The notes beneath the pieces are model-generated. The model saw only the letters and a program-made list of their open reading frames with translations, was not told the origin of the DNA and made no database searches. From Bryum argenteum (taxonomy: Eukaryota > Streptophyta > Bryopsida > Bryales > Bryaceae): a DNA stretch of 64,000 nucleotides. Both the position numbers and the translations under genes were made by a program. Shown one piece after another: positions 16,291-46,620 of this stretch (the stretch's first letter is position 1; each line of letters opens with the position of its first letter). The stretch covers positions 33,210,101 through 33,274,100 of the forward strand of contig CM073321.1 of the NCBI GenBank assembly GCA_037043015.1. The letters run 5' to 3'.

Positions 16291-16320
16291 TCCCTCACAA
16301 CTTTGCACTTGGGTACTAAA

Positions 16321-16336: not shown

Positions 16337-16338
16337 AG

Positions 16339-17635: not shown

Positions 17636-17640
17636 ATAGA

Positions 17641-22511: not shown

Positions 22512-23569
22512 CTATTGTCTCGATGACGGACTTTCTGAGTAATCCAAACGCTCCTCATCATCGCCAGCAATAACATTTTCTTCCTGAGGTACTGCGTCTG
22601 TAGTGCAAGCAGTGTTGTCCGGAGGCTCATCATCCACCACCGCTTGGTCTTCTTGGACGCTGGTCTTGTTGAGCATTGTCATGTCAATATCATCTCCAGG
22701 TCGGGGATGATTCACCAAGGCGTCGTACTGGGAGAGCTCGAGCCCAGATTCGTTCAACAACTCGGGAAATACGTTGGCGCCAACCTCACCAATAGTCGCA
22801 CTAGTACCTTCAGCCGGACAAACCGGTGAAGGAGGTGGAAGATTATCCCCGGGTTGGGGATATATCTCGGTGTCAGCAACCAGTACACCCACTGATACAT
22901 TCATATCAGTAGAGCACTCTTCAAATGCGGCCCCGAAACCACCGATAATGACCTCTTGTGATTCTTCGAGATTTGGGTCCCTAAGCGCTGACTGCTGCAA
23001 TGAGACAGGCTCGGATGCAGCTGACATACAATCATCCCTTGGTTGAGGATGAATCTGAGCACTTTCTGTAGGGGAGGCTGCAACACTGATGTCGAGGGAG
23101 GCAGAATGGGAGGACAAAGGAGAGGCCAAAACATCTCCGAGTTGGAAATAAATATCTTCCACATCTTGGAGAAGAGGATCACATGGACACTAGGCTCAGG
23201 AGTCTGCACTGGAATAGGCTCCTCCGCAGCAGTCATAGGTGTCGGCCTATCTCGCTCTAAATCCGGCTGAGTTGACGCCAAGACAATCTCGTGAAGGTGG
23301 TCAGGGAGAGGGAGATTAGTTCTCGCAAGATATGCAAACACCTCGACTTGCTTTTGGAGGAGACGCTCATTTTCCTCCAATCAGCGATTAGATTCCTCCA
23401 GACGGCAATTCTTCTCCTCCCCAGCCCTCTTTTGTTCTGCTCTAAGGTTGCTCACCTCTCGGTAGTGCTCAGCTACCTTCCTCCCCGGCTGCGATGGACC
23501 AGGAGCTTGCCCAGCCGCATTCTCCAGAGGACCTGCTGGTTCAAAAATTATGGGAACTGCTGCCGAAAA

Positions 23570-23800
23570 TCAAGCGGGATCTTGAGCGGGAATTGCAGCA
23601 GGAACTGCAAAGGGAACTGTAGCTGGGACTGCAGAGGGAACTGCAGAGGGACTTGGAGAGGGACCTGCAGAGGGACTTGCAGCGGAAATTGCAACCATCT
23701 CCTCCTTCACATCTGTCAATGGCGTCGTATCTAGCTCTGAGGCAGGAGTGGCAATATCTAGCTCCGAGGCGGGGGTGGCAATAAGATTCATCACCTCATC
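23570..23800 (-). repeat. In-frame short repeats in the gene B C-terminal region
   Basis: Read in the gene B frame there are two tandem 33-bp units encoding ATPASELD-type peptides near 23715-23790, followed by a Pro/Ala/Ser/Val run (PSPSPSAVPSAVPATVPF) at 23580-23680. Short in-frame units such as these expand easily and indicate a disordered tail. Confidence 0.6.
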
Positions 23801-24424
23801 GTCATTGTCGGAGTCGCTGCCAAGGTCAATCCACACGTGATCCGAGGCAATTATCGCGAAGATAGGCTTCCCCTGCTTATTCAATTTTTTGCTTTGAAGA
23901 GTGGAGACTGCATCTGCCACTAATGACGTTGGCATAGCAGAAGATGCCCCATCGCCAGTAACACCTGCAACCTCGCCACATGGACTAAGCTCGAGCCGCC
24001 GCTTTAGTGGTTGCCTAATCTCCAGAGTGCCCTCCGTCCCACAAGAAGAACCAATATCTATTGCGGGGGATGATATGCCCTCCGTCAGCAGTCCAGGATT
24101 TATCTCCGAAACGGGAATAACTTGACCCATCATAGACCCTGTCGTAATGGTTGGGGTCTCAGATTCGATAATAGGAACCCGCTCCTCTGGAAATGGAGCT
24201 ACGGGACGTATTAGAGACAAAGGACCCGAAGTGGCTGCAGGCGGCGCAGTAGTCAAAAGTGGCGCAGGGGCATGCTCTTCTGCAAGAGCCGGCTGCAAAG
24301 ACTCCTCCTCCCGTATCTCCCCGAACTGAGATGGCACATTAGGATCAAAAAACTCGGGATCTACATAGTCCTCATTGACGGGATTGTCCCCTTGACCACT
24401 ATTGTCGTAATCCTCTCCCATGTC

Positions 24425-24535
24425 CTCAACCAACTCTTCGTCCTCGTCCTCCTCGTCCTCCTCCTTGTCTTCCTCGTCCTCCTCCTCGTCCTCCTCGTCC
24501 TCCTCCTTGTCACCTTTGTCAACATCTTCATTAAC
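24425..24535 (-). repeat. Acidic GAGGAC simple repeat in gene B
   Basis: On the minus strand repeated GAG and GAC codons give a continuous Glu/Asp tract leading into LVEDMGEDYD. The plus-strand poly-Ser and minus-strand Arg-rich readings are frame shadows of it. Confidence 0.7.
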
Positions 24536-27500
24536 CTGTGAATGGGCCAGGTTAGATGTCGTCTCTGCGGCAAGGGACTGCGAAGGATCGTCTGATTCTG
24601 CCGCAACAAACCTAGATGCAGGATCACTCTCCCCTGAATGGTTGTGAGCAGGCTAGCCTCCGCCTCCTCTTCGGAAGACTCTTTTGCACTCCTGTCATAC
24701 GAGCAACTACAGTGCACAAAATCGCGCCAGTCGACCCTTGCCGCTTTCTTAAGCGTCGCGACATGTCGGTCTAGGTGAGGGGATTCAACTAAACTGTAAT
24801 GTCGATGCCCCTGGGTCTGAAGAAGAGAGTGGCATACTCAACAATGGCATTTGAGTAATTATCCCCAAGTCGGGGATGCTAGGAATGAAGATGACAATGA
24901 AGTCAAGCAAAGCGCACATATATTTCTCGATAATGGGTATTTATCACCGAACCGGGGATAACTATGCGAATATAAAAACAGATCTATTTTACTTAGAGCT
25001 ATAAACACAAAATAGGACAGTGAAGAATTATCCCCGGTCTGAGGATAATACATGATAGGCACTTACAACAGACGCGACCATGAACTTCGAACCGGCGAAG
25101 ATTCCTTACGTTGAATCTCCAATCTAGCAATACTTGTGAACAAGGTCGATGTAGAACTCCATTTTGAGTTCTGATTGTTTTGATATCCATTTTGTCTAAG
25201 CAAACAACCCAGCTTGGAATAGTATGGCACCGACGCAGGCTTGTAGTCAGGTTTGATCGTGTTCTTGAAACTGTTGGCGTGGGGATCTCCCTTCCTGAAT
25301 AGGTATATCACGGAGATGTCATTCACAAACTATTCTGGAGCTGTCTCGTTGAAAAGCTTCTCGTTTGAAGCTTTCTTATACTGCAAGACCTCCATGTGGT
25401 GCCCTGGATAATAGTGTTGGAGCACATTCCTCAAAGTCACGAGGGACTTCAAAGGCCCGTTGGCTATCCAGACCCAAATGGGGGGAGCCGTGTACGCCGG
25501 GTCTTTTAGACCCCGAGCTGCCTTCATGACGTATTGAAGTGCAGCAATCTTCATGTCCTCCTTTTTGGTGGTGCTGTATATGGTGTCCCAAAGGTCAAAC
25601 ACACCAAGCCCGCAGACGCCATTCTCCAATGGTACTGCCCATTGAAGGCTCAGTGTTGTTTCTTTAGCAAGTTTTACCAAACGAAGGTAACACCATTCAA
25701 CCTTTTCGACCGGATTCTTGTGGAGGCGAATGAACTTCTTGAAGAATTTCTCCACGCCATGATACATGTCCTCCAAATATTTTTCTGTCTTCAGCTTTCC
25801 TTGGTTCAGCAGCCTGGCCGAGTTGAATCCCTTGTTGATGTGACCAAGCAGCATACTCCAAGACGCGGATGTAAATCCATGAGCCAGCTTCCACAGCTTC
25901 CACTTCTCCTCTTCAATATCATAAGAATCTTCTTTGAAGAATGGAAGCGAAGACTTTATAGCCTTCATTTCTTGAAAGACTATACGCTTCGACTTCCGGC
26001 GAAGGCACCACTCAGAACAAGACCGTTGATCATAGTGCTAGTGCTTGCACTTTGAATTTGACAACTTGGGATACCGACGACTACCAGGCTCGTTGGACAC
26101 ATCGACTAGAAGGCAAGACATTTCATATATGTCCTTGTCTGTTAGCCTCCCAAACTTTCGGAAGAATTCTCGAGTGATGCGGTACTTGAAATTGGAGAAC
26201 CAAGACCTGTTCTTGTAGTAGTAGTCTCCCGTGTTCGGGTCGATGAGATTTCCAATGACATACTTCTCTAGAAAATCCTTGAACTTCTCATACCACACAT
26301 CCTGCAGCATTATGATGAGGATTTCATGCTTCAGATGTGCGGTGCACTGGATTTTCTTGCCTTCTTTGCTGGTGTCAATGTTCTTGAAACTCATGATCAT
26401 GAGTTCGACAAACTCCTAATGTAGTCATTACAACGGCCGATTATGAGAAAGAATACACGAACGCATAAGAATAACAAATCTCCTAACCAGAGATAACTTC
26501 AAAAGGAAAAACAAACTGGAATGCAAATTGAATCAGATTATGCCCGGGTCGGAGATAATTCAAATTCCGATTTCCTTCGCAGGCATGCATAGTCGTGGAA
26601 CGAATGAAAGTTCTTTAAGGGTCAAAGATACATACTAATTAGATAATCCAGGCTAAACACACGTTTGAAGACGTATTGGCAATTACCCCGCGTCGGAGAT
26701 AATATGATAATGAGTTAGCCATACACAAAGAATGACCTGATCGACATAAGCAAAATATCTACAATTCAAGGATAGTAATAAAAACATTCGACAAAAATAC
26801 CTTGTACTTCTTTGGGTTATAGATGCTTGCGTTGGATCGACTCAGACTCATTTGACCTATTTGAAGGACGTCCACAATTGATCCAGATGGAGCGCCCTGG
26901 TTGGATCTGGTTCCCCCTTGTCGGTTGAGCATGGGTAAGGGGATTTGTAATGTTGTAGTGCGCAAATATGGCAGTTAGTCCAGCCGGGTCCTTGTCATAG
27001 ACAACGTACGCATTCCAAGTCTTAAGGGATACACGACGGTCCTCTGGGAGCTTCTAATTAATTAGCTCCCGGGCAGCTTTGACGGAGTGCTGGCCGTCGA
27101 TGATTGCAAAACTCTTAGATTTGATCTCGTCCCAACTCCTGGGCTTTCTATTGAAAAGATTACCGTTCTCCTTCATAGGTGTAATGACAAGAGTCCTGCG
27201 AGCTCCGATGTCTCCTAACATAGCGAGGTATACTTTTAGGCTATCCTTGATTTCTTCCTCAAACGCTTGAATTGTCCACTCGGCCTTCCCGCGACTCAGT
27301 TGCTCTAATGTAGCTGCTTTTGGTTCCTTGTTGAAGAGGAAAGAAATATCGTAATCCTTCTGGAGCTCGGTATGGCCCAATGCTATCTTCGCCCAATCGA
27401 TGCCATCGTCCTTATCCTTCCCATGCTTGTCCTTCTTCGCCTTCTTCTTCTTCTTCGATGAGCTTGCCTCCGTTTCCTGAACCTCCGAGACGTTGCTAGG

Positions 27501-28249
27501 TGCCTCGGATGCTCTGCATCTTCTCTGCATCTTCTCTTCCTCTGAGGCTTTGGTTGCTCTTGTGCGTTCGACATCCTCTTCTTTGTCGACCGCGCTAAGG
27601 CAGACCACTCAGGGTTATTTGTCTGCACACTCTAATCCGGAACTGACATAACAGTTTTCGCTGGAGAAGCCTTCTTCTTGGATGTAGCCGGTTGTTTTGA
27701 CAAATTTGTCAACAATCGGTTTAGTATCCGCGTAAGGTCATCCGCCTTAGGCTCGCCCTAGGAAAGGAAAAGGTTCACCCATGAATCGAGGAATCCATGC
27801 TGCACCTTTCGAAGGTGTTCGATGAAACCATCCGGGTTGAACTGGGGACTACAGTTTGTTCCAACTTCCACAATAATTCCGAATTTGTAGATGTCCTTGT
27901 CCTTTTTATCGAAATGCTCGTGGCAACGAATAAAGACAAACTTGGACCGGTGTGGCTCGAAAGCTACAACTCGAATGTTTTGATGCAGAGGAATGTAGAC
28001 GTCGTTCATTTCCTCACGATGCATGATAAGCAAAGTGTTCCTTTCAATCTTCAGGGTCCAGCTCACAACGACATCCTTGAATTGAAAGAGGTTGGATGCC
28101 TCTATGTCATCTTCTTTGAGGAATGGAGTGTCCCCAAATGGATTCTGGAATAGGTCCATGACCAAGAAGATAGAGCTCGTGTCTGTGACTGCGACTGCCA
28201 TCTTGGTTCTGCAAATCCAGAGATGTCAAGTTGTATGCATGAGGGTCAC

Positions 28250-29135
28250 TCAAATTATCCCCGACCCGGGAATAATTCATGTACTAATGAGCGATAGTAT
28301 TCAATCATGACTAATGTCATCTACGGAAATTGGGATTGTTAGACATACTGATGATTTGGGTGATCCGAGCTCTCAGATATGTCACACTCTTTGAGTAACC
28401 GCTTGCGACGCTGCTCAAACACTGCTTGAACTTTGTCAGGGCTAGCCTTGACGATCCGAGCCGTGCTCTTTGTTCGCGCGTGATTTGATGATACGACTCA
28501 GTGAAACAAATGGAATAAATCGTTAATTTATTCCGACGGTACGAATAATTTGTGGGAGCGTAGGTTTATTTATCCCCGACCCCAAGATAATGCGTTTTTT
28601 TGGCTGGGTCTTACTACATAATCTCACTAAGCTGTAACCATCTTTGCTTTATTTTGCACCACTTAGATTCTTACAGACTAAAAAGCACATGTTCACTTAT
28701 TTCTGGAGGGGGAGTAAAATGTGTTTTTCTGTAGAAAAATAGTTTCGCAAAGTTAGTATCTTCCTGATGTGTAGGGCATGTTATCTCCGGTTCGGGGATA
28801 ATTGTATCAAGTAAGTAGCTTGTTCCACACCTAGAGTACATATTCTACAACTTCGATGAAAATTATTCCCGGAACGGGGATAACTACTGATATAGAGATC
28901 AAATTATCCACGGACCGGGTATAGTTGCTAATAATTAGTGGCGGATTATTTCCGGACCGGGGAATACTTCAGATATATGGAGCAAATTATTCCTAGAATG
29001 GGGATAATTCCTGCAAAATATGAGCAATTATCCCTAGGCCAGGGCTAATTGCTGATAATTAAAGGCAAATTATCTCTGGTCGGGGATAACTTCCACTCAG
29101 TAGAAGCAAATTATAGATGGTGCGGGGATAATAGA
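28250..29135. repeat. Array of 21-bp palindromes (TTATCCCCGGNCCGGGGATAA-like)
   Basis: About ten copies lie upstream and in the first intron of gene B, near 28255, 28570, 28782, 28863, 28905, 28945, 28987, 29027, 29069 and 29110. Spacing is irregular, about 40 bp in the densest part. Arms of up to 9 nt are inverted and often mutated. Further copies occur inside gene B introns (24862, 24938, 25028, 26537, 26683) and even in its coding sequence, where they encode PQPGDN-like peptides (22690, 22850). The same motif recurs at 42635-43710. Confidence 0.85.
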
Positions 29136-29390
29136 ACACACATTGCTAATATCTGCTAACACCAGAATCTAAAATCTAACACTGCTATAGGTTTCAAATC
29201 GACAAGTAATTTGCATTGGAAATGCACACAATACAAGGAATCAGGTAGACATGAATCACCTGACAACAATGCTGAGCGACAACGCTTGTGTATTCTTCAA
29301 AAAGTATATGAATATACGAATGAAAAAAGAAATGTAAATTGTGTTCAGTAAAGTGCTTTGGATCAGAATGAGAAGCACAAGATGAAGCAA

Positions 29391-29465
29391 ACTGATACAA
29401 AACCAGTGATGCAACCTATGCAAACTGATACAAAACCAGTGATGCAACCTATGCAAACTGATGCA
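29391..29465. repeat. 33-bp tandem repeat, two copies plus
   Basis: The unit begins ACTGATACAAAACCAGTGAT, with starts at 29391, 29424 and 29457 (period 33). The third copy is partial. Confidence 0.85.
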
Positions 29466-30056
29466 CATACAAGCACATTGCAGCAAACAATACAAACTAA
29501 AGCACACTGCAATACATTTTCTCATTGAAAAAAAGCACAAAAGCAAAACTACAAATTCAATGAAAAGCATTCACAAACCAGCGAAACCTTAATGCGCAGC
29601 TCTTGCTAGGTCCATTCTTCTCCAAAAACTCAAAAACTCCACTTCCGCAGCTGTCAAAAACTTAAATGTACCTCTAAAAAGTAGTCTATTCAGATGGTGT
29701 ACAGGAGAGCAGGCGGAGACGATGACCACAGAGGAGACTTTTAACATATGCAAAGTACTCGAAGCATCGGCAAGGTAAGCAAAGTGACTATCTGCGTGAG
29801 TGCTAGGGCAAGCGAAGTCGTCAACAGGCATGAAAGCGTCGAAACGAGTCTAGCGACAAATGAACGAAGACGAGACAAGCGCGAAGACGATGACAAGCGC
29901 AAACGATAACAAGCTCGGAGAGCAGGTGGAAAGATGCGCTGCGACAACGACGACAACAAATGTGCGGAGGAAGACACTGTGCGGGCGCGAAGTGAAAGAA
30001 AGGACTGCGCTCGCAAATGGCAGCGCTGTCGGCCATCATGACCTGTCATAATGGAA
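29466..30056. other. Region without a recognised gene
   Basis: Open frames on the minus strand here (29831-29589 and 30112-29741) are Ser/Arg/His-rich with no domain. The plus strand is rich in CGA and GACGA motifs near 29820-29960. Confidence 0.4.
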
Positions 30057-30110
30057 GCATGCCCATGATGATGTACATGGGCATGCCCATGTACATCATC
30101 ATGGGCATGC
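30057..30110. repeat. Perfect 54-bp palindrome
   Basis: The sequence equals its own reverse complement over its full length. Each 27-nt arm runs GCATGCCCATGATGATGTAC then ATGGGCA. It sits exactly at the border between mixed-composition DNA on the left and very AT-rich DNA on the right. Confidence 0.97.
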
Positions 30111-30234
30111 ATTTTTATTTTTTATTTTTTAAAATTACTTTTGTTTTCTAATTTTTCTAAGTTCTAATATGTGTATAAATTATTTTGTTTCTTATTTGAC
30201 TTAATAGGTATGTTCTAACTTTTGTTTAACGCCC

Positions 30235-30370
30235 ATGTTCTAAATTTCATATGGTATTCCAAGTATAATACTCAAATATTCTAAAAGTGGTATTCTAAGA
30301 TTAAAATTGAGTTATTTTAAGTTAAATATTCTGAAATAAGTGTATAGTAAACTAGGTCTAGTATTCTATT
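30235..30370. repeat. AT-rich dispersed repeat R, copy 1
   Basis: It contains 'tggtattccaagtataatac', then 'caaatattctaaaagtggta' and 'gttattttaagttaaatatt'. It shares this order of blocks with copies at 32436 and 37036, in the same orientation. Confidence 0.8.
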
Positions 30371-30371
30371 T

Positions 30372-30459
30372 GAGCGGTGCGTGTGGAGCATTCGAGCGGT
30401 GCGTCTAGGGCCCCCGAGCGGTGCGTCTAGAGCCCCACAGCAGTGCATCTGGGATTCTT
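30372..30459. repeat. 22-bp GC-rich tandem repeat, four copies
   Basis: The unit is about GAGCGGTGCGTCTAGGGCCCCC, starting at 30372, 30394, 30416 and 30438. It is an isolated GC-rich island in AT-rich DNA next to repeat R. Confidence 0.88.
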
Positions 30460-30764
30460 ATACTTTTAATATGATTTTTTTTTTTACATTTTTTTTTAAA
30501 ATTACATATTTTTATTTAGTTTTAATAAATTTTCATATTTTTAGTATACTTTTACTTTGTATTTTGAGTTATAATTCTTTTTTTAATAAGCCTTCAAGAA
30601 AGATGCTTGTATATAATAGAAAATTGTTATTATTATAGATTATAATGTTTTGATTTTGGGAGATAGTATATAGTTGCCTTTTTGGAGCGTAGGCTTGCAA
30701 TATTTATAACATGACAAAAACATGTGCTCAAACACATAAAAAGTAAAACAAATCAATTCAACAA

Positions 30765-32267
30765 GTGATCAAAGAGAAGTTCCTAAAAAAGAGAAATGTA
30801 ATAGAGTTGTTTTATGATAATGACAATGCACAAGGATGTAAAACCCCTAAACATGCAAGAAAAAAGTTTTCCAAACTATTTATAGTACCATGTATTAAAA
30901 CGTTAAACACCCCTTATTTCAAGACGGTTTTTGTAAATAAAACCAAAAATACCAATTTGAAAATTTTGCAAAAGCAACAATATTATGTACATTTGTGTCA
31001 CAAATTGTGTGAGGAATGTCTTGATGATCCTCCAATTTGTCCTATATGCGACGCCGACAAAGATACACAGATTGAAAAAAATACAAAGTGGATTTTTAAT
31101 TTCATTTTGACACAAGATATAGTAATAAAAAGCTTGGAAGAATTTCACAATGTATATGATGAACTTCTGATTTTTGTGAAAGATAAATCAAATTCCAACA
31201 CATTAAAGGATGAATCTTTATGTACAATTCCAAATTGTAAGTTTGAAATAAATTCCATTAAGGAAAAACAAATTTTACAAAAGTTTGGTATCAAAAAGAA
31301 GATGGAAGTTATGATTTCATATTCAAACATCCCAGCAGAAAAAACGAAAAAGAAGAATTTCCCACTACCGTATTCGATAGATCCACAATTTGAAGGTAAT
31401 TGGGAGGAGAATTATGAGGATGACAATACATTCCCTATTCAAAAGAAAAATTTGTTGGTATTGAACGGCTATGATATTATAAATACAAAAGTTACAAATA
31501 CTCAAAACATAAAATTCAATCATGTAATGCTAGTATATTTTCAAAAGATATGAGATAATAGACTAAGTTATCGACATACCTTGGCTACCGCTAACACCTA
31601 TTTTGAGACATCTCCATATGGAGGGAAAAAAACTGATGATAATGCACAAAGAGGCACGTGTAAATTTACTAGTCATGGATTTTTAGCACATGAAGATTCA
31701 GAAGGTGATGTAGTAAAGTATAATAGAAAAAAGGTATAAAACGCTGGTCAAGAAAGTTTTAGAAATTTTGGTAATGCTCTTGGCTCTTCCATTTGGCAAC
31801 ATCTATTAAAATTTGGTAAGGAGATGGAAATTTTTTTTGAAGTTCAACATGCACCTGTTAATTCTGTATATGTAGGTGTTCAAGAGTATCCTACAAAAGT
31901 ACACCAGATGCAACTAAGTAAAAACACATATATCAAAGCTCACCTTGACAAAGAGGATATGGGAGCATCACCAATATCATGGTTTACAAGAGGAGATCCA
32001 AAAGGAGGATATTTTAGTGTATTTCGATCATATCTCAAGTTCAATATAAACAAGGGAGCTGCTCTATTTATTCATAGTAAAAAGTATGTGCACGGAACAA
32101 TGAAGTTCTAAGACGAAACACTTGGTGACCAAGTTTACAAAATTGGTATTGCTATGGTGAACAAAAAGCAATTGCATACAAGAACCATAAATCAATTCAA
32201 AACAGGGGAAAAAATGACGTGGAAACATAGTAAGTCAGGAGTGCATTCACCTCAAAGCAATGAGTAA
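30765..32267 (+). pseudogene. AT-rich 500-codon frame with RING-like and 2OG-Fe(II) oxygenase-like motifs
   Basis: One reading frame runs 500 codons with only three in-frame stops (TGA at 31551, TAA at 31737 and 32109) and no frameshift. The first part (GTG at 30765; no ATG in frame) has a RING-like second half, HLCHKLCEEC...CPICDADKD, near residues 76-100. The last part (from about 31824) has KAHLDKED, giving an H-x-D pair, and 48 residues later KKYVHGTMKF, a candidate distal His. After the last stop the frame continues with GDQVYKIGIAMVNKKQLH. H-x-D...H with these surroundings resembles a 2OG-Fe(II) dioxygenase such as TET/JBP or prolyl hydroxylase types. Codons are extremely A/T-rich, unlike neighbouring genes. 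Start and introns are unclear. The oxygenase assignment is inference. Confidence 0.5.
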
Positions 32268-32435
32268 TGTCATGTATATGTAAATTTTGGCGCCTTGTAT
32301 TATCATATACATGTAAATTTTTGATTATATCAATAAAAAAACAAAAATAATTTTGACGGCTTTTATATATAGATTCATTAGCCTAGTTCAATTTCGACTA
32401 ACTAACTCTAACTTAATTATTCACTTGATTTGATA

Positions 32436-35110: not shown

Positions 35111-37035
35111 TTTACAAAGCCTGCTCAATAACCACTCATTGCAAACTTACCTTAGTCTCAACTTTCCATTACTCATAACGGTGAATACGATCTGCTGTTA
35201 CCATGGAGACAATGTGCCAAGGTTTGGATATCAAGAACACGGTGTTACACATTCATGTCACCACTTGCAAGAGCAGTGAACTAATCAATGCCGCATAACA
35301 AGGGCAATCAACATCGTGTTTCATTTCCACGATGTTCGCACTGGAGTTGTCAAGACTTTTGCAATTTCGAACATCTGGGGCAGAGCTTGACAATTTTCTC
35401 CTTCAGTTTGGCTCTTTTAAAGCCTTCTATCATAGCTATCAGTGTGATGAGGGTGGGTAAGACCTCATTTAGCTAGCGAGTTGGGATCAATGGCTATTGC
35501 CAAATTCTTTGACCCGATTGTAGGGGAGTCTTTGTTTGACGTAGATAATCTTTCTAGAAGGAATATTGTTTCTTTAAATTGAAACACTTGTATTTTACAT
35601 GTTCCCGCTATCGTATATTTCTTTGTCCAGAGATTTGATGCTTTTTGGTAATTTCTACAAATAGCCCTAGAATAGGAGAACACAAAATTGGGGATTTTGG
35701 AATCTATACAATATGGAGGAGGGTACAGGCATAGGACTGCTTCTCCTGGTTGTGTAACCCTCCATGTACTTTCCCAAATTTAGATCTATGACCGGTTCCT
35801 GCAGAGGGTCATCAATAACAACAGTATTTTAAATTTGAATTTTGGCTACTCAGAATTTTAGAATGATTCCTCGAACGTCGCTCCCGCTTGCAATGATGGT
35901 TTCATGGAAGATGACGTTATAATCTAAGCAATTTTGTATAGTATTGCCCTTCTTTTTTGATGATGGACAGTACAGTCAGTTACCAGCCGATAACGAATTC
36001 AACCTTATGAGATTTTCTTTTTGAAAGTTCGAAAATTCATTGTGATCTCTAAAAGAGTCTGGTTTGAGAACTATAAAGGGTTCTGGAATACATTGGCGTG
36101 TTCTAGAATGTCATTGTACATGATCATTTATCATTTATCATGTACAATGATATTAGATTTGAGACAACCTAGGACAACGTTTATATAGATAAGGAGAGGT
36201 ACACTAGTTGTTAGAGATCTCTCTCATGGGCCACATGCTAATCGCGTGAAAGAACAACCATTTGTTTCACAAATCAATATACACTTCTAGTCCTAGTCAT
36301 AATTCATTTTGAAGCTTGTCTCATTCTATATAAAATTCATTTTGTGAGTGCAAAATATAGGTGACTATAAAATGTTGTTTTTTTAAAAACTCGTTGCTCA
36401 GATAAGACATCACTAATAGGTGCTGACATGAGTACGGTAATAGAAATTGTTGAGATGTTAGAGAGAGAGAGCGGGGGCCCAACATGTGTGGGACTTTTGG
36501 AGACTAAATGATGAGTTTCCTTTACACCGCAAGTTTTGGAGTAGTGGTGAGCCTTGGAAGATGCCCAATCAAAGGCATACACATTATCATATGAAAATTC
36601 ATAAGTTTAGTCTCTATGCAATATTCTCAAAAATATAACTGATCTCTTGCCATTTCATATTTATGTGGAGCAATTGTGGCACCTCATATAAAGAACATTC
36701 AATAGTGGAGAAGTGTGGAATTTTTACTTGGCTCTCGACCAACATTTCTACTAAGCTGGGTAGAACCAAACATTATTGGTAGAAATTCTAGTGGAACCCT
36801 ACACAAATATCTAAAAACTAAAAAGTGGTACTAATTAGTACCATTTCTTAGAGAAAATCATTGCCATAATTAATCAAAACCATAGTGAAACAATATATTC
36901 TTCACAACTATCCAAATCTTCAAAAAACAAAGTCCCAAGGTAAACGCTTCCAAATTTCAAGTAGAGGAATCCCACCTAATATTTGAATGTTCTACAAATC
37001 TGTTTGCATTTGAGGTCCCACACGACTTGTTTAAG
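35111..37035. other. Non-coding stretch with LTR-like sequence
   Basis: No gene supported. Around 36040-36330 there is an LTR-like layout: a hairpin (36111-36150), then 'tttatatagataaggag', a TATA-like box, then 'caatatacac'. It may be a remnant of a small LTR element. The flanks are AT-rich. Confidence 0.35.
36111..36150. repeat. Inverted repeat, 14-nt arms with 12-nt loop
   Basis: The left arm TCATTGTACATGAT (36111-36124) and right arm ATCATGTACAATGA (36137-36150) are perfect complements. Confidence 0.93.
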
Positions 37036-37322
37036 TGAAATATTCTAAGATTAGTATGTAGTAAATAAGGTGAGGTACTCTAACTTGATTATTTACTAAA
37101 TTTGATATGATAATCTAAGTATAGTACCCAAATATTCTAAAAGTAATATTTTAAGATTAGAATTGAGTAATTATTAGTTAAATATTCTAAGATTAGTATC
37201 TAGTAAATAATGTGAGGTACCCTAACATGATTATTTACTAAATTTGATATGGTATTCTCAGTTTAGTACTTAAATATTCTTAAAGTAGTATTCTAAGATT
37301 AGAATTGAGTTATTTGAAAATT
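37036..37322. repeat. AT-rich dispersed repeat R, copy 3 (two or more passes)
   Basis: It includes 'gataatctaagtatagtacc', 'tattctaagattagaattga' and 'aatattctaagattagtatc' in tandem passes, same orientation as copies at 30235 and 32436. Confidence 0.85.
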
Positions 37323-37774
37323 GAGCAAAGTAATTGAAAATTGCGAGCGAAATGGAATTGAGTGTTTAAGGGGGTGAATGATGGCAAAGGAGGTCATTTG
37401 GCTTCTTCATGATGATAGGTCAGGTCATGATGACGGCATGCCTATCTTTATGTATGTGTTATAAAACAACAAAATTATGAATAAATTGAGTAATCTTAAA
37501 ACTTCAACTCACTTGTATGATGTTTTCAAAGCTCGTAATTTCCTAAACTTAACCTCTAAATATTGAACATCGTCTATACTTGGACCATACTTCTTAAATT
37601 TAAGTTCTTCTTACGTTTATCTTGTTGTTCGAACAACCTCATGACTTTGATTGTAATAGATTCTTCAGAATGTTGAATGTTATCCTATTTAACAATTTAA
37701 AGTGATCATAATTGGATTTACGTAAGTAATAACCAAGCAAAATTTTCATTTTCTTTTATTGGTTCTCAAGTTCA
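37323..37774. other. Flank between repeat R and the CACTA element
   Basis: AT-rich, no gene. It holds 'ataggtcaggtcatgatgac' near 37425, which partly matches the reverse complement of 'ggccatcatgacctgtcata' near 30031. The two might be decayed inverted ends of a larger composite element. Confidence 0.3.
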
Positions 37775-40700
37775 ATTCACTATAAGAAACCTGCGTTTTT
37801 AATGATGTTGTAAATGATGTCTAAAAAGACATCGTAGACATTAATTCGGATGTCTTATAGACGATAAGACATCCTAGACATGACAGATGTCTAAGCAGAC
37901 GTCTAAAAAGACAGGAAAATGTCTTAAGATCGAACATGTCTTAAGGTAATTTTTGAAGGGTAAAAAGTGTGCCACGTAGGTGCCACGTAGATGACACATC
38001 AGCTTGAATTCAACGGGCAGTGCCACATGGGGATGAAATTCATCATGATGTGGAATTTTACATGGTCCCATGAAAGATGACATGGCGGCGCGAGAATCCC
38101 ACGTGGACCCGAGAAAATCCGACGTCGCACCCGGGAATATCTGACGTGGTACGCGGGAAAAGTTGACGTGGACCCGGGAAAATAACATGGCATGCCACGT
38201 CAGCATATTGCGGAGGTTTTATGCTCCTATCATGATAGTTTTAGACATCAGTTAAGACGACTTAAATGTCTTGCAAGACATCTTAGATGTTGTACAAGAT
38301 GTCTTGCAAGACGTATGCAATGTCTTACAAAATATCTTAGAAGACAATTTTTATGTCTTATAAGATGTTTCCAGTGCGTAGAATGATGTTTACGTTGATG
38401 TCCTTCTTAAGTTTGTGATGTTTGCTCGGATGTTTGTAGCAACATCTCCTAGGACATGATGTTTGCAACAGTGTTACTATTGATGTTCTTTGGGCATATG
38501 AAAGAACATCTAGGATGACATTTTTAGATGTTTATATAGTCATCAGATCTGTAATCCACAGACGTCTCACATAAAATCAACTGTAAACACTGTCGCATCA
38601 AAAAGTATGAATCAAACATATATTGCTTAGGTCATTAAAACCTCAGATAACATAAACTAGAATATTTACTAATACGCCTGTCAAGAACTACGATATACTA
38701 CGCACCCACAATTTGAACTCCGTAAGTCCCTCCACTTCCATCGCTTGTTGTCGATACCCGTATGGTCATGTGCATGTCCCGCCGCTAAACATATTCAATA
38801 AGCCAATATCAACTGCATTTAAAGAAGGGTTTGTAAAGGTAAAAAACTTCTGATTTAATTTCATTTAATTGCACTACCTAGGTTGAGATGGTTTACTTCC
38901 TAACGTCAAGATATCGACACAGTTAGACATTCTTGCAAACATCTGCTTAGACATTTCTTCAGACATCCTTCTAAACATCATTAAAAACAACGTTATAGAC
39001 ATCTATACATACATCTGTTCCACTCACCTACAAGCACGCATGTCGCTTCGCGGCCTCAGATCGTGCTCGCTGCCCCGACCCCTTATGTCCCACCTTCCAA
39101 AATAGAATTCCACCAACACATTTAGACATCTTCATAGACATGCTCTAAGACATCTTGCAGACATCATCATAAACATCTTCTACAACAAATCAAATACTAC
39201 AAGTACTAGGGTTTCCTTCACAACAAATCAAATTCTACAAGTCCTAGGGTTTCTTGTACAAGATGCTTTTGAAATCCAGTACCTCTTAAGTAGCAAATCT
39301 TAGCCACATGAAGAAGGAAACCTACTCTTGAGAGCTATTGGATTTCTAAAAATACTATTCCCTTATTGTAGTTAACAATCATTCTAAAAATGAACGGAAA
39401 CAATTTCGAAATCCTCTATACTTTAAACACAAACTCTTTGGAAAAACTAAGGCAAAAATGAGCTTTGTAATTCCCTTTGAAGATCTCATGACCTAACTAT
39501 GGCGGCGGCAACAAACCCTAGCCACATGAAGAAGCAAACTTTAGCCTCTACACTCCAAACACTAACACTTTGAAAAATGAAGGCAAAAATGAGCTTCGTG
39601 CGGCCTCTAATTCTACTTAAAGGTCTCATGACCTTACTATGGCGGCGGCAGCAAACCCTAGCCGCCTCTGTTCATCCATTGAAGTCAATGAAAATCATCC
39701 GTGTAGATAGTTCTGGATGCTGTCATAGATGTCATCTTCCACATCTTCATAGACATCATGTTAAACATTTTCATAAATGTCATCTTAGACATCCCTGCAG
39801 ACATTATCATAAACATCTGATGACATTTTCAGGGTTTCAATCACAACACATTAACTATAAAAGGTCTTTTGTTTTCCCTCACAACAAATCAAATACCAGA
39901 TGCTTTAAAGTTCTTTCCACAACAAAGCACATATTGTAAGTCTTAGAGTTTCTTCCACAGCAAATCAAATAATCTTTATTGATAGAAAACGTGTGGAATT
40001 ACAATCATGAGACTATTTATAGTCTTCCGTGGTGATAGGCTCTCTTTTAAACTCTCAACTACCTTTTATTTCTACCCTAACTAACTTTCCAACTAACTTT
40101 CTTAATACTAATTCTATTCTTGAATTGTCTCCTAAACTCGTATTAAATAGCTACTTTCATAAATTCATATTTCTTGTAAATTTGCTTTAATTTGTATAAT
40201 ATTGGTTGTTAATGATAGAGTAATGTATAGTCTTGCCATTAGACTATAATAATCTAATCTATAAGTAATCAATAATATTTAATTCCTTCTTGAAGTAAGC
40301 CATAAAAACACTTTTATTGTTTTTATTTTCTTTTATATTTTCTTTATGTATTTGAGGATTACCCCAATCGAGACCCGCGCCAATGGAGGACAAGTCAGTA
40401 AGAGAAAAAGTTGATATTATTTTTTAAAAGACTCTTAAGATCGCTTTTTTTTAGTAAATGACGTCTAGGAGGATGTGTCGCGCAAAAATCTCTTCATAGA
40501 CATCCAAGTAGATGTCTATGCGGACATTCATGCCTCGATCGAGTTATGGTAAGTTGGACATCGTGTTAGACATCCGACTAAATGTTGAATGACTTGTCAA
40601 CCTGTCCGACGTGGAGTTTTTGTTGCCATGTAGATAAAGCGCCAAAATAACTTTATTAATCTATGTCCACGTGTTTTTTGAGGATTAAATATCCACGAAA

Positions 40701-41373
40701 TTACTTTTACTTTTTTTTTTGGCACCATTGTTATCTTATAGATATTATATTTTTTATATAATATTTTTTAATATTTAAAAATTTTTAATCTTTTAAAATT
40801 ACAGAATTATAAAATTCTAATTTATTTGAATATAATAAAAATTTAGAAAAAATATTTTTTATTGAATTATGATTATATATTTTAATATTTTTTTTAAAAA
40901 ATAGACCAATGAAAAAATAGTGAGAATAGCCTGAAATTAGTATTTTCAGTATTGCCACGTCACGTAATGATTTAGCAAAAAAAAAAAAAAACAAAAAAAA
41001 CAAAAAAAAAAAAAAGTGTAATGTTTTTTTTTCTACTTTTGAAAACCGCTGCCCATTCACCTACTCTTTTAACATTAGAAATGCTTTTCACCCTCTCTAC
41101 CAGTAAATTTTGGTCGTTTTTACCTTGTTGGTCCAAAATCCCTTGCCAACGTGGCAGTTTGATGTCTATCAAGATGTCTTCGAAGACATCCATGTCTTCA
41201 CCAACATCTTTTTGTGTGGTGATGTCTTCATGCCCCCCCAATCCAAAATGTGCCCGTTAGACGTACAAACATCCTCCCGTCTTCGAAGACATCTTTTAAG
41301 ACAGTAAGACATCACAAAATACATTAGACATTACACAAGACATCACAAAAAACAGGGTTTTCTTATAGTGATT
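37775..41373. mobile_element. Non-autonomous CACTA (CMC/EnSpm) element with ATT target duplication
   Basis: The element spans 37778-41370 (3593 bp) with terminal inverted repeats. The left end is CACTATAAGAAACCTGCG; the right end read on the minus strand is CACTATAAGAAAACCCTG. Identical ATT trinucleotides flank it at 37775-37777 and 41371-41373, the 3-bp duplication expected of CACTA transposons. Dozens of AGACATC/GATGTCT motifs in both orientations fill the terminal kilobases (for example 37830-38560, 38930-39180 and 41160-41350), typical of subterminal transposase-binding repeats. No transposase is recognisable; open frames inside are small and built from the repeat. Near 39970-40030 a minus-strand TATAAATAG and an AATAAA suggest a nested remnant. 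Confidence 0.92.
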
Positions 41374-42634
41374 GCTTATAAAAGAAGGTATATCCTTATA
41401 AGAAACTTAATACTTTCAAAGTATTACTGGTGTTATAAGTATCTCATTCAATGGTCATACACTTTGCATAATAAATTTTGAACCTAAAATTACATGTTGG
41501 TCACTCAAAATGTTACTTAGAATACATAAGATCCACCTCTTTTTGGATAAATTGATAAATACTTCTAAATTTGAACTAAGAAATTATTATATAAATTAAA
41601 TTAATTACAATATTAAAATAACCAAAAGTCAATCCATAGAAAACAATACATGAAGTATAAATAGTTTATATATTTATATGTGAATAACTAAAATATTAGT
41701 AAATTCTAAACCATAAATTTTAGCTCTATTTTCTAAACCCTAAACATACCCTTAAACTCTAGAGCTTAGTCTAAAAATCCTAGATCCAAATTCTAACGCT
41801 AAACCCGCAAACAGTAAATTCTAAATTTTGAACCCTATATATTAGCTTTAAATCCAAAATTCTTTTCGAAACTTTAAACCCTAAAGCATTGATTTTGAAC
41901 CTTTAATCCTTACTTAAGTAAAGTTAAATAATGTTCAATATATATTGTAAGATTTCCCTTTGATTGTAAAGATTTATTACAAAAATGTAATAAGAAATAT
42001 AAATTGTGCAATTGTATATGGATTTTCCGCTGAAATATGGTTACTTCGGAAATGGCTTCCCGCCCAAATAGTTTCCCGCCAAAAAAGTAGAGTCTTTAAT
42101 ATTTTCCTCTTACGGCGGCGCCACGTTTTGAATAGCGACAGGCCAACATTCTAGCCGTTAAGCTTTGAGCTTGGGTTAAGTTCCATTCGTCACTTTTCGG
42201 AAGCTCTTTCTCTCCCTTTGTTTCGCTTGACTGAGTTGCGGCTTCTTTGTGTTGTCTTCGCGTCTAGGTTTAATTGCTGCCGTTTGGTGTGTATGGTGTT
42301 GGTCTGGCGCGCGTATGTGTTGTTGTTTCTCAAAGAGGGCAGTATTCGGTTCTCTAGGATGCGCGAGCATTCTCAAGCTAGTATAATCAATTTTATACCT
42401 TCATAGTCATAGTCTTCTGTAGGGGATTGTTCGGACGCTGATACTGGTCGATTCTGCTATTTCTTCAGCTTCGTAGCGTACTTCTTCCTCTTCAAATTTG
42501 CATGGTCCAGATATGCATGGTTACCCTATTTTGTACTTAAGTTCTTTTCTCTTCATCGTTTTCGCATGACTTACTACTTATACTTAGTCTATTATCCCGT
42601 AGTTGGTTTAGACCAATGGAATACAAAGATATAT
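41374..42634. other. Intergenic, AT-rich, with telomere-like CCCTAAA words
   Basis: No gene supported. Between about 41720 and 41890 the words 'aaaccctaaa', 'aaaccctaa' and 'gaaccctata' recur, like decayed plant telomere repeats, but without a regular array. Around 42170-42400 a plus-strand frame is open but shows no domain. Confidence 0.4.
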
Positions 42635-43710
42635 GATAATCCCCGTATCGGATATACTTTCATTCCTAGGAATATTTGCGTTATTCCCGACTCGGTAATA
42701 AAGTCAGCGTCTGTAATTACCCCGGACCTGGGGATGAAGTTATCTCCGGGTCGGGATAAATACAGACGCTGACTTTATCACCGAGTCAGGGATAAAATTA
42801 TCCTTAGTAATTTTAACATTATCCCTGCCCGAAGTTAAAGCCAGCGTCTGTATTTATCCCCGACATGGAGATAACCTTATCCCCTAGTCGGGGATAAATA
42901 CAGACGTCGACTTTATCACCGAGTCGGAGATAAAATCATCCTTAGTAATTTTACCATTATCACTGCGCAAAGATAAAGCCAGCGTCTGTATTTATCCGTG
43001 ACCCCGAGATAACTTTATCCCCGGGTCGGGGATAAATGCTTAAGCTGACTTTATCACCGAGTCGGGGATAAAATCATCTTTGATAATTTTTGCATTATAA
43101 CGGCCCAAAGATAAATGATGCCAGCGTTCGTGTTTATTCCCGACCAAAAGATAAATTTGTCCTCGGATTGAGGATATATAAATCCGTAATCATATTTGGT
43201 TTATTTTTACTCGGATGTAGATAGTTTCGGCTATTTTTATCCCCGTGTTGGGCATAAGTTGATTCCCGGGGGAGGGAGGTAATTTTGCTAGCTTATATTA
43301 TTGTAGGTTATCCTAAGCCCCGAGATATATATTCGTCATCATGTATCTGTGGACCCTGTTCACAATGCCCACCAAAGTTTATGTCTGGCTAGGAGAAGAC
43401 TGTTTTCTTGTTCGAGTTTAGCTACAGCAAGTTGAATTTATCATGCAATAGTAAATTAATTATCCCCGCGTCGGGAATATGTATAGTCAGTTATATTTAT
43501 CCCCGGATCGGGGATATGTATCTTCGTTTACTTAAATCGTAATTTTGTTATCGATTTATAAGTGATTAACCCCCAGCCAGGGATAATAATTTTCTGCTAT
43601 AGGATATACAATCTCTTGCCGGTCTCTTGCCAGAGATAATTGCTTGGATTGCAATCTGCTCTTACTATGGAATTATCCCTGACCCGGGGATAATCAATCA
43701 TAGTTGCAGG
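42635..43710. repeat. Second array of the TTATCCCCG...CGGGGATAA palindrome
   Basis: Copies lie near 42635, 42681, 42717, 42740, 42860, 42885, 43015, 43055, 43462, 43498, 43573 and 43672. They are the same family as the array beside gene B, and the last copy is about 150 bp before the transposase start. Repeated 'cagcgtctgta' blocks accompany them and form larger inverted repeats. Confidence 0.85.
42774..43150. repeat. 138-bp tandem repeat carrying the palindromes, about 2.7 copies
   Basis: The phrase 'tttatcaccgagtcgg' starts at 42774, 42912 and 43050, an exact 138-bp period. Each unit holds two or three palindromes, an 'aaatcatccttagtaatttt' block and 'ccagcgtctgtatttatcc'. Confidence 0.88.
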
Positions 43711-43835
43711 CGTTTTTGAACCTTAATTCTTTTCGTTGTCATTTCTTAAGGGTATTACTGGTAGGATCTTTCTCATCAAAGGTGTTTCACATCCTCTTTC
43801 AGATTATGATACTCACATTTGTCAATGCTTGCAGA

Positions 43836-46620
43836 ATGGGTGACTTTGTCATCGATGGTGTGGACTTTCGGCCTCCCGTGCTTCCGAATGATGTTGCTCA
43901 ATGTAAAGACTTCAGTCGATCCTACTGGGTGTCCAAACGAGTTACACTCGTGAATGAAAGTGGAGACAATGTCGCAAAGGCGGTGTACAACTCAAATCTT
44001 GTTCCGGAGACAGATAGTAGACCATTGGGCACAGACTTCGTCTATGTTCAAATAGCAGAGTCTTTGGTGCAATCTATTGTTTCGTTTGGATGGATTCACT
44101 CCTTGCGTGCATGGCCGATTAAACGTGTCATTCTCAATGGTGCCACCCTTTACAATCACAACCAACGCGCCATATACAATATAGCAATGAAGTCATTTGG
44201 AAGACCTCCTCGGAATGGCGTCCGACAGTACGAGAGTACCCGTGAGAGGTGTCCTCGTAATTCAGCACCAAAAAAACAATATCACTTGACATTAGCGTCG
44301 ATCAACTATGTGTCGACCAACGCTTGTTATTCAGTGAATTGTATTCAGCCCTTTCCTTGAGGAAAGTTACAGATCTTAGGACACAATTCTATGTGACTAG
44401 AGACGTTTTCTTTAGAAAACATCGTCTCCTAGACGTTTATGACCAAGTCCATGAAAATGAAAACGGAATCAATATGATAACCTTGGAGGGTATTGAGGTC
44501 TGTTGCATTGCATGGGCCTTGTTTACCAAGGGCCACATTCTTCCGGTAGAGATCTCTTTACCGAGACGGAGCACAAGCAGATCATCATGGAAATCGTGGT
44601 TCCAAGAAGCCTCGTATTCACATGGTGCAAGCAACTACTACCCTCAAGGCTATTGTGAAAAATGCGGCCGACCTCATGCCTCATCGAACTAAAACTGCTC
44701 CTACAGGCGAGAAGGTAGAATCAAAATGCTTGCCCTCCTCCTACCGTTGGAGAGACAACTTACCACAAGTGAATGTCGTGAGTGCCAAAAATGGCCTGTT
44801 TTCCATATCGCATTCATCTTTGAGCAGGATACGACAAGAAAATTTCTCGGAGTATTATGTGAAGCCAAAGGGTGACACATTTGCTCGTTGTGGTGAATGT
44901 GATAAGATCCAGCAACTTCGAGCGTCTAGTACTCCTGGTAGTCGTGCATGGGCTCTTCACAATGCTAGATTCAAAAAACACAACACATCACAAATGTTGC
45001 ACATGCTATCGTATTACGCAAACCGCGAGTTATCAAAGTCATACTCAGAGAAGGAGTTGTGTATTATACATGATAAAATGGATCATTCAAAGACTGCCCC
45101 TCCATAATTCTCCCACAAGAGCAAATCAACAGATTCCTTAATGCAGTTGCCGGTTTTGATCACGGGCATGATTGCGCATGAGCACGGTCACGTACGTTAT
45201 GCACATTATGGCCTTGACATGTACCCGACGGATTCTAATCATACGATTGGGTCATTTGCTCAACTACTGAAAGATTTAGAATCTCCACCAAAATGCTCTA
45301 GAAGGGAATTGTTTACCGGAGGCAGAAGTAGCTCCTTCTCTGAAGCAGTTTTGGATGGTGCCGGCATCTGCTTGGATTCGCTTGGTTTTATACCAGAGGC
45401 ACCAATCCCTGCTAAATCACTACCACCAATGTTGCATTTGCAGCTCGATAATGCATGCGGAGATAACAAGAACCGATTCGTATTTGCGTTTTTTTCCCTT
45501 TTAGTTTATAAGGGCGTTTTTAGGGAAGTTTACTTGAACTTCCTTAATGTTGGGCACACTCATGAAGACATTGACGCTCTTTTTAGGCGATGGTGCAATA
45601 AGTTGAAGAGCAACAGTTACCCCACTGTACCCCTTCTCATGAAATCATTCATGGATACGGAGGAAATGCCAGTCATTCCTCACATGATTGACGAAGTTCC
45701 AAACTTCAAGAATTTTCTTGAAGGCTACTTGTGTGATGGGGACGAATCATAATCGGGGCATACAAGTGCACAACAATTCCGGTTCTTCAAAGATACATCC
45801 GGGTGGCCTCTTATGCAATACAAAATTCATTATACAGATAGTGAGTGGCTCCCAAAAGACAGTGCTGGAGTTAGATTGTGGAAAGTATTACTTAGTGGTC
45901 AACCCAAGGTTCCTCTTGGAGAGCCAACATTGGTGGTTCCAAATGAGATGAGGAATATCGACGACATTTGTAAGGGCATCAGTGGATTTGTGAACATGTG
46001 GGAGTCATTGGCGGATGCTGATCCATCTGGGGATTATCGTAGGCAACACGAGCAATTTATTTACTATTAGAAGTCTGTTTGCGAGGCTCTAGATGTGCCT
46101 ATTTCTACTCCTTCTGCATTTAGGGACGGATTTTGGCCAACATCAAGGTTCTCCCTGAGTGAAGAGGATCAATTTGAAGACAACGGAGAATTGCGTTAGG
46201 AATTTGCTAATGATCCTCCATTCGTAACGTCCTAACGCATCATTTAGAGTTCTCCGCGATTGTTATGAGGGATATCTACTTGCCCTTCGTCCAGTTGATG
46301 AAGATCCTGAGAAGGTTTGGATCGCCCGAGCTTTGAGCAACCCTTATAATAGTGTGGAGCACCCTAATTCAATTTTGCTAGAGTATTGGAAGCCAGCATC
46401 TTATAAACATGTGGACCCTGATACTTATGAAGGGTGGGATACGAAGAAATGTAACTCTTGGTTGAAGGACACAAAGTATCCACCAATTTGGATGGCTACT
46501 TCTTCCATTATGACAGCTTGGAAACCAAGATTCCATTTCCGTACCATGAATCCGAAGATGTCCATACCGACAACACAAATCAATGTGATCAAAGATTCAC
46601 TTATGGAATTTTTCGACTAA
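43836..46620 (+). pseudogene. DUF7869-like (RNase H fold) transposase, decayed
   Basis: ATG at 43836 follows a TTGCTTGCAG acceptor. The N-terminal part (FVIDGVDFRPPVLP) runs to a stop at 44358, and the next piece (44324-44570) carries REVTDL-like KVTDLRTQFYVTRDVFF. The 44622-45107 piece has CGECDKIQQLRASST (possible zinc ligands) and ends IIHDKMDHSKTAPP. The core, 45141-45752, has LITGMIAHEHGHVRYAHY, YPTDSNHTIGSF, LHLQLDNACGDNKNR (Asp103 of this piece) and FLNVGHTHEDIDALF (Glu142/Asp143). These are the conserved blocks of DUF7869, a DDE-like family. C-terminal pieces extend to 46620 (SIMTAWKPRFHFR). Multiple stops and frameshifts break it. The upstream palindromic array suggests it is the transposase of the iteron-bearing element family. 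Confidence 0.75.

What the first reader, a model, noticed from the sequence alone, without database searches (positions are those of the whole stretch)
22512..46620. One palindromic iteron family links gene B and the DUF7869 transposase locus
The motif TTATCCCCGGNCCGGGGATAA and variants form a dense array at 28250-29135, recur in introns and exons of gene B, and form a second array at 42635-43710 just upstream of the DUF7869-like transposase. It is not seen in the intervening CACTA element or the 30-37 kb region. Two loci 14 kb apart sharing a signature palindrome suggests they belong to one mobile-element family. Gene B has a ParB-like segment (IIDGQHSVKAA), and bacterial ParB acts on dispersed palindromic parS sites, so an element-encoded protein acting on its own iterons is a reasonable, unproven idea.
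Basis: partly seen in the sequence, partly recalled or inferred. Interest (0 to 1): 0.85.

Follow-up and report, generated by a model that had tools for sequence, protein, structure and literature searches.

The report
Giant moss transposon with palindrome arrays
The two repeat-rich spots are two parts of one very large jumping gene, which carries dozens of copies of a short mirror-image DNA word beside and inside its own genes; a related jumping gene carries a precisely altered version of the same word, which suggests that these elements make a protein that recognises their own DNA.

Summary
The motif is real: 13 sites with up to 3 mismatches in the window, 0 expected; 1901 in the genome, reversed control 1. 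The two loci are parts of one TIR transposon, window 9226-47109 (37,884 bp, swollen by nested insertions), with a TTTT target duplication and a recognisable empty site. Three less disturbed copies are about 19 kb; 14 of 14 TIR pairs examined have a 4-bp duplication. Genes: DUF7869 (probable transposase), a NIF-type phosphatase, gene B.
Palindromes lie upstream of gene B and of DUF7869, in introns, and inside gene B, where synonymous third positions are 98% conserved against 81% outside. A sister family, gene B about 33% identical, carries the same frame with two bases per arm exchanged symmetrically: TATC-GT-CGnnnCG-AC-GATA instead of TATC-CC-CGnnnCG-GG-GATA. In the listed part of C1 each word sits mostly beside its own gene-B clade.
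Best reading: an element-encoded, self-specific regulator that works like VANC of VANDAL elements. ParB membership is not supported. Binding is untested.

The parts
9226..47109 (.). Whole transposon (37,884 bp including nested insertions)
   Evidence: TIRs at both ends, TTTT duplication, and a related repeat at C1:954,612 (E1 9612) that lacks it
9226..9252 (+). Left TIR, GAGGGTGTATTCATTAAATTGATACAA
   Evidence: 68 ends of this and related types in the genome with up to 3 mismatches, control 3
47083..47109 (-). Right TIR, AAGGGTGTATTCATTAAATTACGACAA
9222..9225 (.). Target site duplication TTTT, left copy
47110..47113 (.). Target site duplication TTTT, right copy
9588..17635 (.). Probable LTR retrotransposon nested near the left end (1.3-kb direct repeats, 98.5% identical); not part of the system; its own genes not looked at
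   Evidence: 9588-10879 against 16339-17635
17854..18138 (-). Remnant of the left-end exon (60% to the E1 ORF), possibly the 3' part of the phosphatase gene
21135..21962 (-). NIF (NLI-interacting-factor-like) phosphatase gene, 58% aa identity to the E1 copy; decayed
   Evidence: (Pfam NIF 8.5e-15 in the E1 copy)
22482..28234 (-).
   Evidence: blocks 27-44% identical to E1
22843..26558 (.). Palindromes within gene B: 22843, 24100 (inside matching blocks), 24941, 25028 and 26538 (between blocks, probable introns)
28255..29048 (.). Palindrome array directly upstream of gene B (half sites continue to 29131)
42775..43693 (.). Palindrome array directly upstream of DUF7869
43836..46617 (+). DUF7869 gene, probable transposase; 69% aa identity to the copy in L014 over its first 733 residues; decayed (8 stops in the aligned part)
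48616..48619 (.). ATAT, the empty counterpart of the site into which the E1 copy inserted
1781..4004 (-). Remnant of the sister (GT-word) family: gene-B 3' part and GT-type palindromes with up to 3 mismatches at 2101, 2830, 2919, 2970
   Evidence: 71-81% nt identity to L051

Best explanation
This is a giant DNA transposon family of a moss-like genome (about 19 kb when little disrupted), with TIRs that begin AAGGG and a 4-bp target duplication. It encodes a DUF7869 protein (probable DDE/D-type transposase), a NIF-type phosphatase, and gene B. The four copies chosen by TIR carry 19-39 copies of a 21-23 bp palindrome upstream of the two divergent genes, in introns and in the coding part of gene B. 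Gene B, or a complex that contains it, most probably binds the palindrome as a dimer and regulates the element's own transcription, more likely as an activator or anti-silencer than as a repressor. Each family has its own word, TATC-XY-CGnnnCG-Y'X'-GATA, so that the protein acts on its own family and not on the sister family. Shown: element anatomy, placement, DNA-level conservation of the sites, two words that track two gene-B clades.
For: Element: TIR and 4-bp duplication in 14 of 14 pairs examined, plus E1 (ATAT) and the window (TTTT) with empty sites; 170 TIR ends, control 0. Of 4 elements chosen by TIR alone, 4 carry NIF, gene B and DUF7869 in the same order (DUF7869 partial and its array missing in the shortest) and 26/39/19/22 palindromes at up to 4 mismatches. 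Conservation of DNA: synonymous third positions 144/147 identical inside motifs against 2436/3014 outside (4 copies, 6 pairs); palindromes persist in introns that otherwise align poorly between the window and most other copies. 2 of 6 outside gene-B relatives that reach past the end of the ParB-like exon (P0123, P0124) show the site's translation at the same place. Co-divergence: a sister family with gene B 32-35% identical carries the GT palindrome in the same placement, upstream and, at L051 2579, in the same gap between blocks; 324 exact sites, control 0, while the other symmetrical dinucleotides are rare: 24, 0 and 26 places. CC sites 52/69 within 15 kb of a B-CC gene and 0/69 of a B-GT gene; GT sites 46/50 near B-GT and 8/50 near B-CC; random positions 4.0% and 3.3% (listed part of C1 only). 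dN/dS (NG86) 0.09-0.13 for DUF7869, 0.21-0.24 for NIF, 0.19 for one part of gene B in one pair. Functional precedent: VANC21 motif arrays in introns of VANC21 and VANB21 and upstream of VANA21 (passages of PMC5735166).
Against: No binding data of any kind. No DNA-binding domain was recognised in gene B; its model is useless (pLDDT 34). Word and gene B travel in the same element, so co-occurrence alone is partly expected from descent. The window lineage has a gene B only 27-44% identical to E1 in its matching blocks and keeps the CC word, so divergence of gene B does not always change the word. Two stretches beside other sister TIRs (L048, L049) show neither word in their 10 kb. Intron sites are not universal: E1 has none in its second intron at up to 6 mismatches, F3 one of two, F1 a version one base short in the first. 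4 of the 6 relatives mentioned do not show the intron site (P0121 and P0127 end soon after the exon). Array copies can be homogenised by duplication, and the 4 sequences behind the third-position test are related; F1 and F3, with broken frames, were left out. 17 of 69 CC sites and 4 of 50 GT sites had no scored gene B of their clade within 15 kb (only the best 90-91 of 943-975 candidates were scored). One group of 8 GT sites lies near genes of both clades.
Confidence: 0.6

Rival explanations
1. The palindromes are binding sites of the DUF7869 transposase itself, used to assemble the transposition complex (as subterminal repeats are in CACTA elements).
For: The family is a TIR transposon, and the TIR start AAGGGGATATT of the main lineage shares GGGGATA with the half site. 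Sites are far more frequent than the reversed control.
Against: In the four TIR-chosen elements no site (up to 4 mismatches) lies within 1.6 kb of a left end or within 3.5 kb of a right end. The window lineage has the TIR AAGGGTGTATT with the same palindrome. Sites lie in introns and at gene starts.
Confidence: 0.12
2. A host transcription factor or host chromatin protein reads the palindromes; the element only collected sites.
For: Arrays upstream of genes and sites in introns are what cis-regulatory sites would show.
Against: Two distinct words, each mostly beside one gene-B clade, and few sites with other dinucleotides; a host factor would not be expected to switch with the element's gene. 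Not excluded.
Confidence: 0.13
3. ParB/parS-like system: gene B loads at the palindromes as a CTP clamp and spreads, for segregation or copy maintenance.
For: The local string (I/L)I(D/N)GQHSV recalls ParB/Srx Box II by eye. A fold survey found ParB-like folds often on mobile elements (abstract and passages of PMC12704722).
Against: No profile match; GxxR arginine replaced by serine in 7 of 7; no ParA-like partner among the 16 ORFs or ORF pieces scanned with Pfam; no usable structure model.
Confidence: 0.05
4. Passive tandem-repeat expansion: the arrays are minisatellites and the palindromes have no function.
For: Spacings of about 43-46 and 61-63 bp prevail in the two arrays and copy number varies between elements. 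Homogenisation could also raise third-position identity.
Against: Single sites in introns and exons are conserved; symmetrical difference of both arms in the sister family; few sites of other dinucleotide classes.
Confidence: 0.06

Closest known systems
VANDAL elements and VANC anti-silencing proteins (Arabidopsis, Mutator-like)
   Same: Element-specific short motif in dense arrays upstream of the transposase gene and in introns of the element's other genes; arrays gain and lose copies; a variable element protein and a more conserved transposase (passages of PMC5735166; abstract of PMC10398659). Here too gene B differs more than DUF7869 (27-44% against 69% aa identity, window against E1 and against L014).
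   Different: No shared Pfam domain found; the VANC21 motif is a 9-base word arrayed in one orientation, here the word is a long palindrome; TIR and 4-bp duplication unlike those of Mutator-like elements (recalled).
Spm/En TnpA and its subterminal repeats (CACTA superfamily)
   Same: Element-encoded DNA-binding regulator with many copies of its own site (recalled; PMC2613891 seen in a search listing only).
   Different: TnpA sites lie close to the element ends (recalled); here sites are internal, at gene starts and in introns. TIR does not begin CACTA and the duplication is 4 bp.
DndB / DGQHR and ParB/Srx-fold proteins
   Same: Gene B has GQH after D or N, an invariant RQ pair and an invariant N..N that recall the DGQHR, QR and FxxxN motifs (passages of PMC4619093). 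DndB is described as an ATP-dependent repressor of its operon (passages of PMC12704722).
   Different: No profile match; the arginine of DGQHR is a serine in 7 of 7.
DUF7869 proteins (Pfam PF25273)
   Same: Clear member: 1.9e-42. Relatives in Ceratodon purpureus and Physcomitrium patens.
   Different: The term DUF7869 is in 0 papers of the held library. Here the gene is tied to a TIR element with a defined duplication.

Membership tests
TIR (class II) DNA transposon | Terminal inverted repeats | tested here: met
   copy E2 showed no TIR in its fetched 30 kb
TIR (class II) DNA transposon | Target site duplication of fixed length | tested here: met
   4 bp in 14 of 14 pairs examined, plus E1 and window
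TIR (class II) DNA transposon | Empty site in related DNA | tested here: met
   window and E1 reciprocally, in a diverged repeat; not sought for others
TIR (class II) DNA transposon | DDE/D transposase fold | tested here: inconclusive
   D422 41/41, D544 40/41, E/D583 41/41 and D584 40/41 in the alignment of the query and 40 of 127 hits, but the model is weak there (pTM 0.30) and has no meaningful PDB match
Known TIR superfamilies (CACTA, hAT, Mutator, Sola2, Ginger and others) | TIR start, duplication length and transposase family together | not tested
   AAGGG, 4 bp and DUF7869 together fit none that I recall; no reference library of superfamilies was at hand
ParB | ParB profile match | tested here: not met
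ParB | Box II GxxR arginine | tested here: not met
   GQHS in 7 of 7
ParB | Binds dispersed palindromic sites | not testable with these tools
   sites shown, binding not
VANC-like anti-silencing system (works like) | Family-specific motif arrays beside and inside element genes | tested here: met
VANC-like anti-silencing system (works like) | Protein bound at motifs and loss of methylation | not testable with these tools
   no methylation or binding data
VANC-like anti-silencing system (is a member) | VANC protein domains (DUF1985 and DUF287, as the figure legend in PMC5735166 has them) | tested here: not met
   no such Pfam match in the gene-B pieces scanned

The most novel reading that the evidence does not exclude
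A plant transposon superfamily, unrelated to VANDALs, evolved its own sequence-specific self-recognition system: a degenerate ParB/Srx- or DGQHR-like protein reads a palindrome of fixed frame in which one dinucleotide per arm is the family's password. Families become mutually blind when gene B and the password change together, and the protein keeps its own element's promoters open in the face of silencing.
Probability: 0.3. Interest if true: 0.85.

Novelty: new variant of a known kind. Interest (0 to 1): 0.72.

Why it matters
Protein-motif co-evolution in selfish elements is known in detail from VANDAL/VANC. A second, independent case in a moss, with two natural protein-word pairs whose words differ by a symmetrical two-base exchange, would make the recognition code directly testable and suggest that self-specific regulation of transposons is a recurrent solution. 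It also gives a DUF7869 family, so far a domain of unknown function, defined ends and a 4-bp duplication.

Tried and rejected
Rejected: two separate elements sharing a motif (TIRs and target duplication enclose both). Rejected: motif as a feature of every DUF7869 or NIF element (three 10-kb stretches beside sister TIRs, L048-L050, have no CC sites at up to 5 mismatches; L050 has 3 GT sites, L048 and L049 none). Considered: L048 palindrome GACTTGCGTCGACGCAAGTC as a third family word; it recurs about every 328 bp as if part of a tandem repeat, and my genome pattern with a central N did not fit its even centre, so (8 places, control 4) is no test of it; left open. Considered: link between TIR (GGGGATA) and half site; dropped because the window lineage has AAGGGTGTATT. 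The structure models of DUF7869 and of gene B gave no usable fold. No exact motif in viral contigs or in prokaryote genomes. No tblastn match of P0121 in plasmids.

Full report
Observation. The motif is there and far above chance: 13 sites with up to 3 mismatches against 0 in 100 shuffles. All 13 lie in 22843-43693, in the two arrays and in gene B. In the genome of the window (258.8 Mb, 25 contigs) there are 1901 places with up to 2 mismatches against 1 for the reversed pattern.

One element, not two. Clusters elsewhere show the same order as far as the fetched DNA reaches: gene B reading left, array, spacer, array, DUF7869 reading right (in E3 the DUF7869 match is distant, 38-45%, and in E4 the stretch ends before it). 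Copy E1 (C1:957,871-980,068) has TIRs AAGGGGATATTnnnTATTTTGAGACAA and a duplication ATAT; the empty site is recognisable in a related repeat in the window itself at 48616-48619. In turn the window copy is bounded by TIRs at 9226 and 47109 with TTTT on both sides, and its empty site is recognisable beside E1. The finding's interval therefore lies inside one 37.9-kb element. It is inflated by nested DNA, for example a probable LTR element with 98.5% identical repeats at 9588-17635.

The family. The TIR pattern finds 81+89 ends with up to 2 mismatches, control 0 (first 100 listed). I chose 14 pairs of facing ends from that list (not all that it offers); 14 of 14 have a 4-bp duplication, of varied sequence; E1 and the window come on top. 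Four whole elements chosen by TIR alone (13.6, 18.6, 19.0 and 19.2 kb; 4 of 4) contain NIF, gene B and DUF7869 in the same order and 22, 26, 19 and 39 palindromes with up to 4 mismatches. The shortest has only part of DUF7869 and lacks the array before it. The window belongs to another lineage with TIR AAGGGTGTATT; the pattern for it finds 68 ends with up to 3 mismatches, control 3, among them related types AAGGGCTTATT and AAGGCCTTATT.

Genes. DUF7869 is a confident Pfam match (1.9e-42); the named relatives among the 120 listed are from the mosses Ceratodon purpureus and Physcomitrium patens, hence 'moss-like' for the genome; I did not identify the species. Conserved D422, D544 and E/D583-D584 suit a DDE/D transposase, but the fold was not confirmed. 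The NIF phosphatase is a Pfam match (8.5e-15). Gene B has no family above cut-off in Pfam or NCBIfam. dN/dS by NG86 is 0.09-0.13 for DUF7869 and 0.21-0.24 for NIF (YN00, where it ran, up to 0.28), and 0.19 for a part of gene B (E1 against F4; window against E1 was saturated, as is dS for DUF7869 with the window).

The sites. From 252 sites with up to 3 mismatches (a choice that itself favours conservation) the extended word is RTTATCCCCGGSCCGGGGATAAY. Placement in the element with most sites, F2: 10 sites straight upstream of gene B, 20 upstream of DUF7869, 3 between gene-B blocks (probable introns), 4 in the coding part, 2 near the phosphatase end; none in the central spacer. In E1, E4, F2 and F4 the coding sites are in frame and read YPRxGDN or close to it. 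Among positions where the amino acid is the same, the third base is identical in 144/147 inside motifs and 2436/3014 outside (6 pairs of these 4 related copies; F1 and F3 have broken frames and were left out). In two gene-B introns sites persist between the window and most other copies although the rest of the second intron aligns poorly; exceptions are E1 (none in the second intron), F3 (one of two there) and F1 (a version one base short in the first). Of 6 outside relatives whose frame reaches past the end of the ParB-like exon, 2 show the site as a peptide, IYPRPGDN in P0123 and IYHRSGDN in P0124; P0121, P0127, P0131 and P0132 do not, the first two ending soon after. Their DNA was not seen.

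The sister word. A gene-B paralogue (32-35% identity to E1 blocks) about 6.5 kb from an end of type AAGGGCTTATT (3 mismatches to the pattern) has, upstream of its start, in its 3' part and in the gap between the same two blocks, the palindrome TATCGTCGnnnCGACGATA. It differs from TATCCCCGnnnCGGGGATA by one dinucleotide per arm, symmetrically. It occurs 324 times exactly in the genome, control 0. The other symmetrical dinucleotides in the same frame are rare: 24 places (A or T first), 0 (G then A, C or G), 26 (C then A, G or T). In the part of C1 that the listings cover (CC 0.96-9.55 Mb, GT 0.23-5.64 Mb), CC sites lie within 15 kb of a B-CC gene in 52 of 69 cases and of a B-GT gene in 0 of 69; GT sites lie near B-GT in 46 of 50 and near B-CC in 8 of 50 (all 8 in one group next to genes of both clades). 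By groups of sites: CC 7/12 near B-CC and 0/12 near B-GT; GT 9/12 near B-GT and 1/12 near B-CC; random positions 4.0% and 3.3%. The window also holds a remnant of the GT family at about 1781-4004. Against a general rule: two other stretches beside sister TIRs, L048 and L049, show neither word, and the window lineage keeps the CC word with a gene B that is only 27-44% identical in its blocks.

Mechanism. The anatomy resembles VANDAL21, where motif arrays lie in introns of VANC21 and VANB21 and upstream of VANA21, copies vary, and VANC binds and removes silencing (passages of PMC5735166; abstract and outline of PMC10398659). By analogy gene B is the most likely reader: it is in both families, its clade mostly tracks the word, and its gene is itself strewn with sites. 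That it activates or protects rather than represses is inference from the analogy. A role in transposition proper is less likely because sites keep 1.6 kb or more from the ends in the four elements measured. ParB membership fails on profile and on the Box II arginine; kinship with the wider ParB/Srx or DGQHR group is a lead only.

Novelty. No paper holds the term DUF7869 and none combines DNA transposon, ParB, phosphatase, terminal inverted repeat and eukaryot-. The rows listed (15 of 79; 3 of 3; 12 of 30) show no such element in title or start of abstract; I read none of those papers. These searches cover an open-access library only. The parts are of known kinds (TIR transposon, self-regulating motif arrays); the combination, the proteins and the two-base exchange are new to me.

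Noticed in passing
C1 of G000 (44.1 Mb of 258.8 Mb): These elements pile up on C1: 57 of 68 TIR ends of the window lineage and related types and 19 of 32 exact T-centred palindromes, against 17% of the bases. C1 might be a sex chromosome or another poorly recombining one.
   Followed up: no
window 1781-4004: Remnant of a GT-word element next to the CC-word element, so that both families are in the window.
   Followed up: partly
L048 4435-6749: Palindrome GACTTGCGTCGACGCAAGTC recurring about every 328 bp (7 places), in a stretch beside a sister TIR (AAGGCCTTATT) with a NIF gene; may be a third word or just a tandem repeat.
   Followed up: partly
genome: DUF7869 is a very large family here: 151 matches with 150 of 1808 candidates scored, none in 14 control genomes; many matches lie in long open frames.
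   Followed up: no
C8:16224482-16539408: Five TIR-like ends AAGGTTATACTCATTAAATTTACACAA (3 mismatches) on the same strand within 315 kb; perhaps a local duplication.
   Followed up: no
P0131 (928 aa), P0132 (478 aa): Distant gene-B relatives (27-28%); P0131 runs on beyond the ParB-like part in one frame and by eye resembles the C-terminal part of gene B; may help to find the fold.
   Followed up: partly
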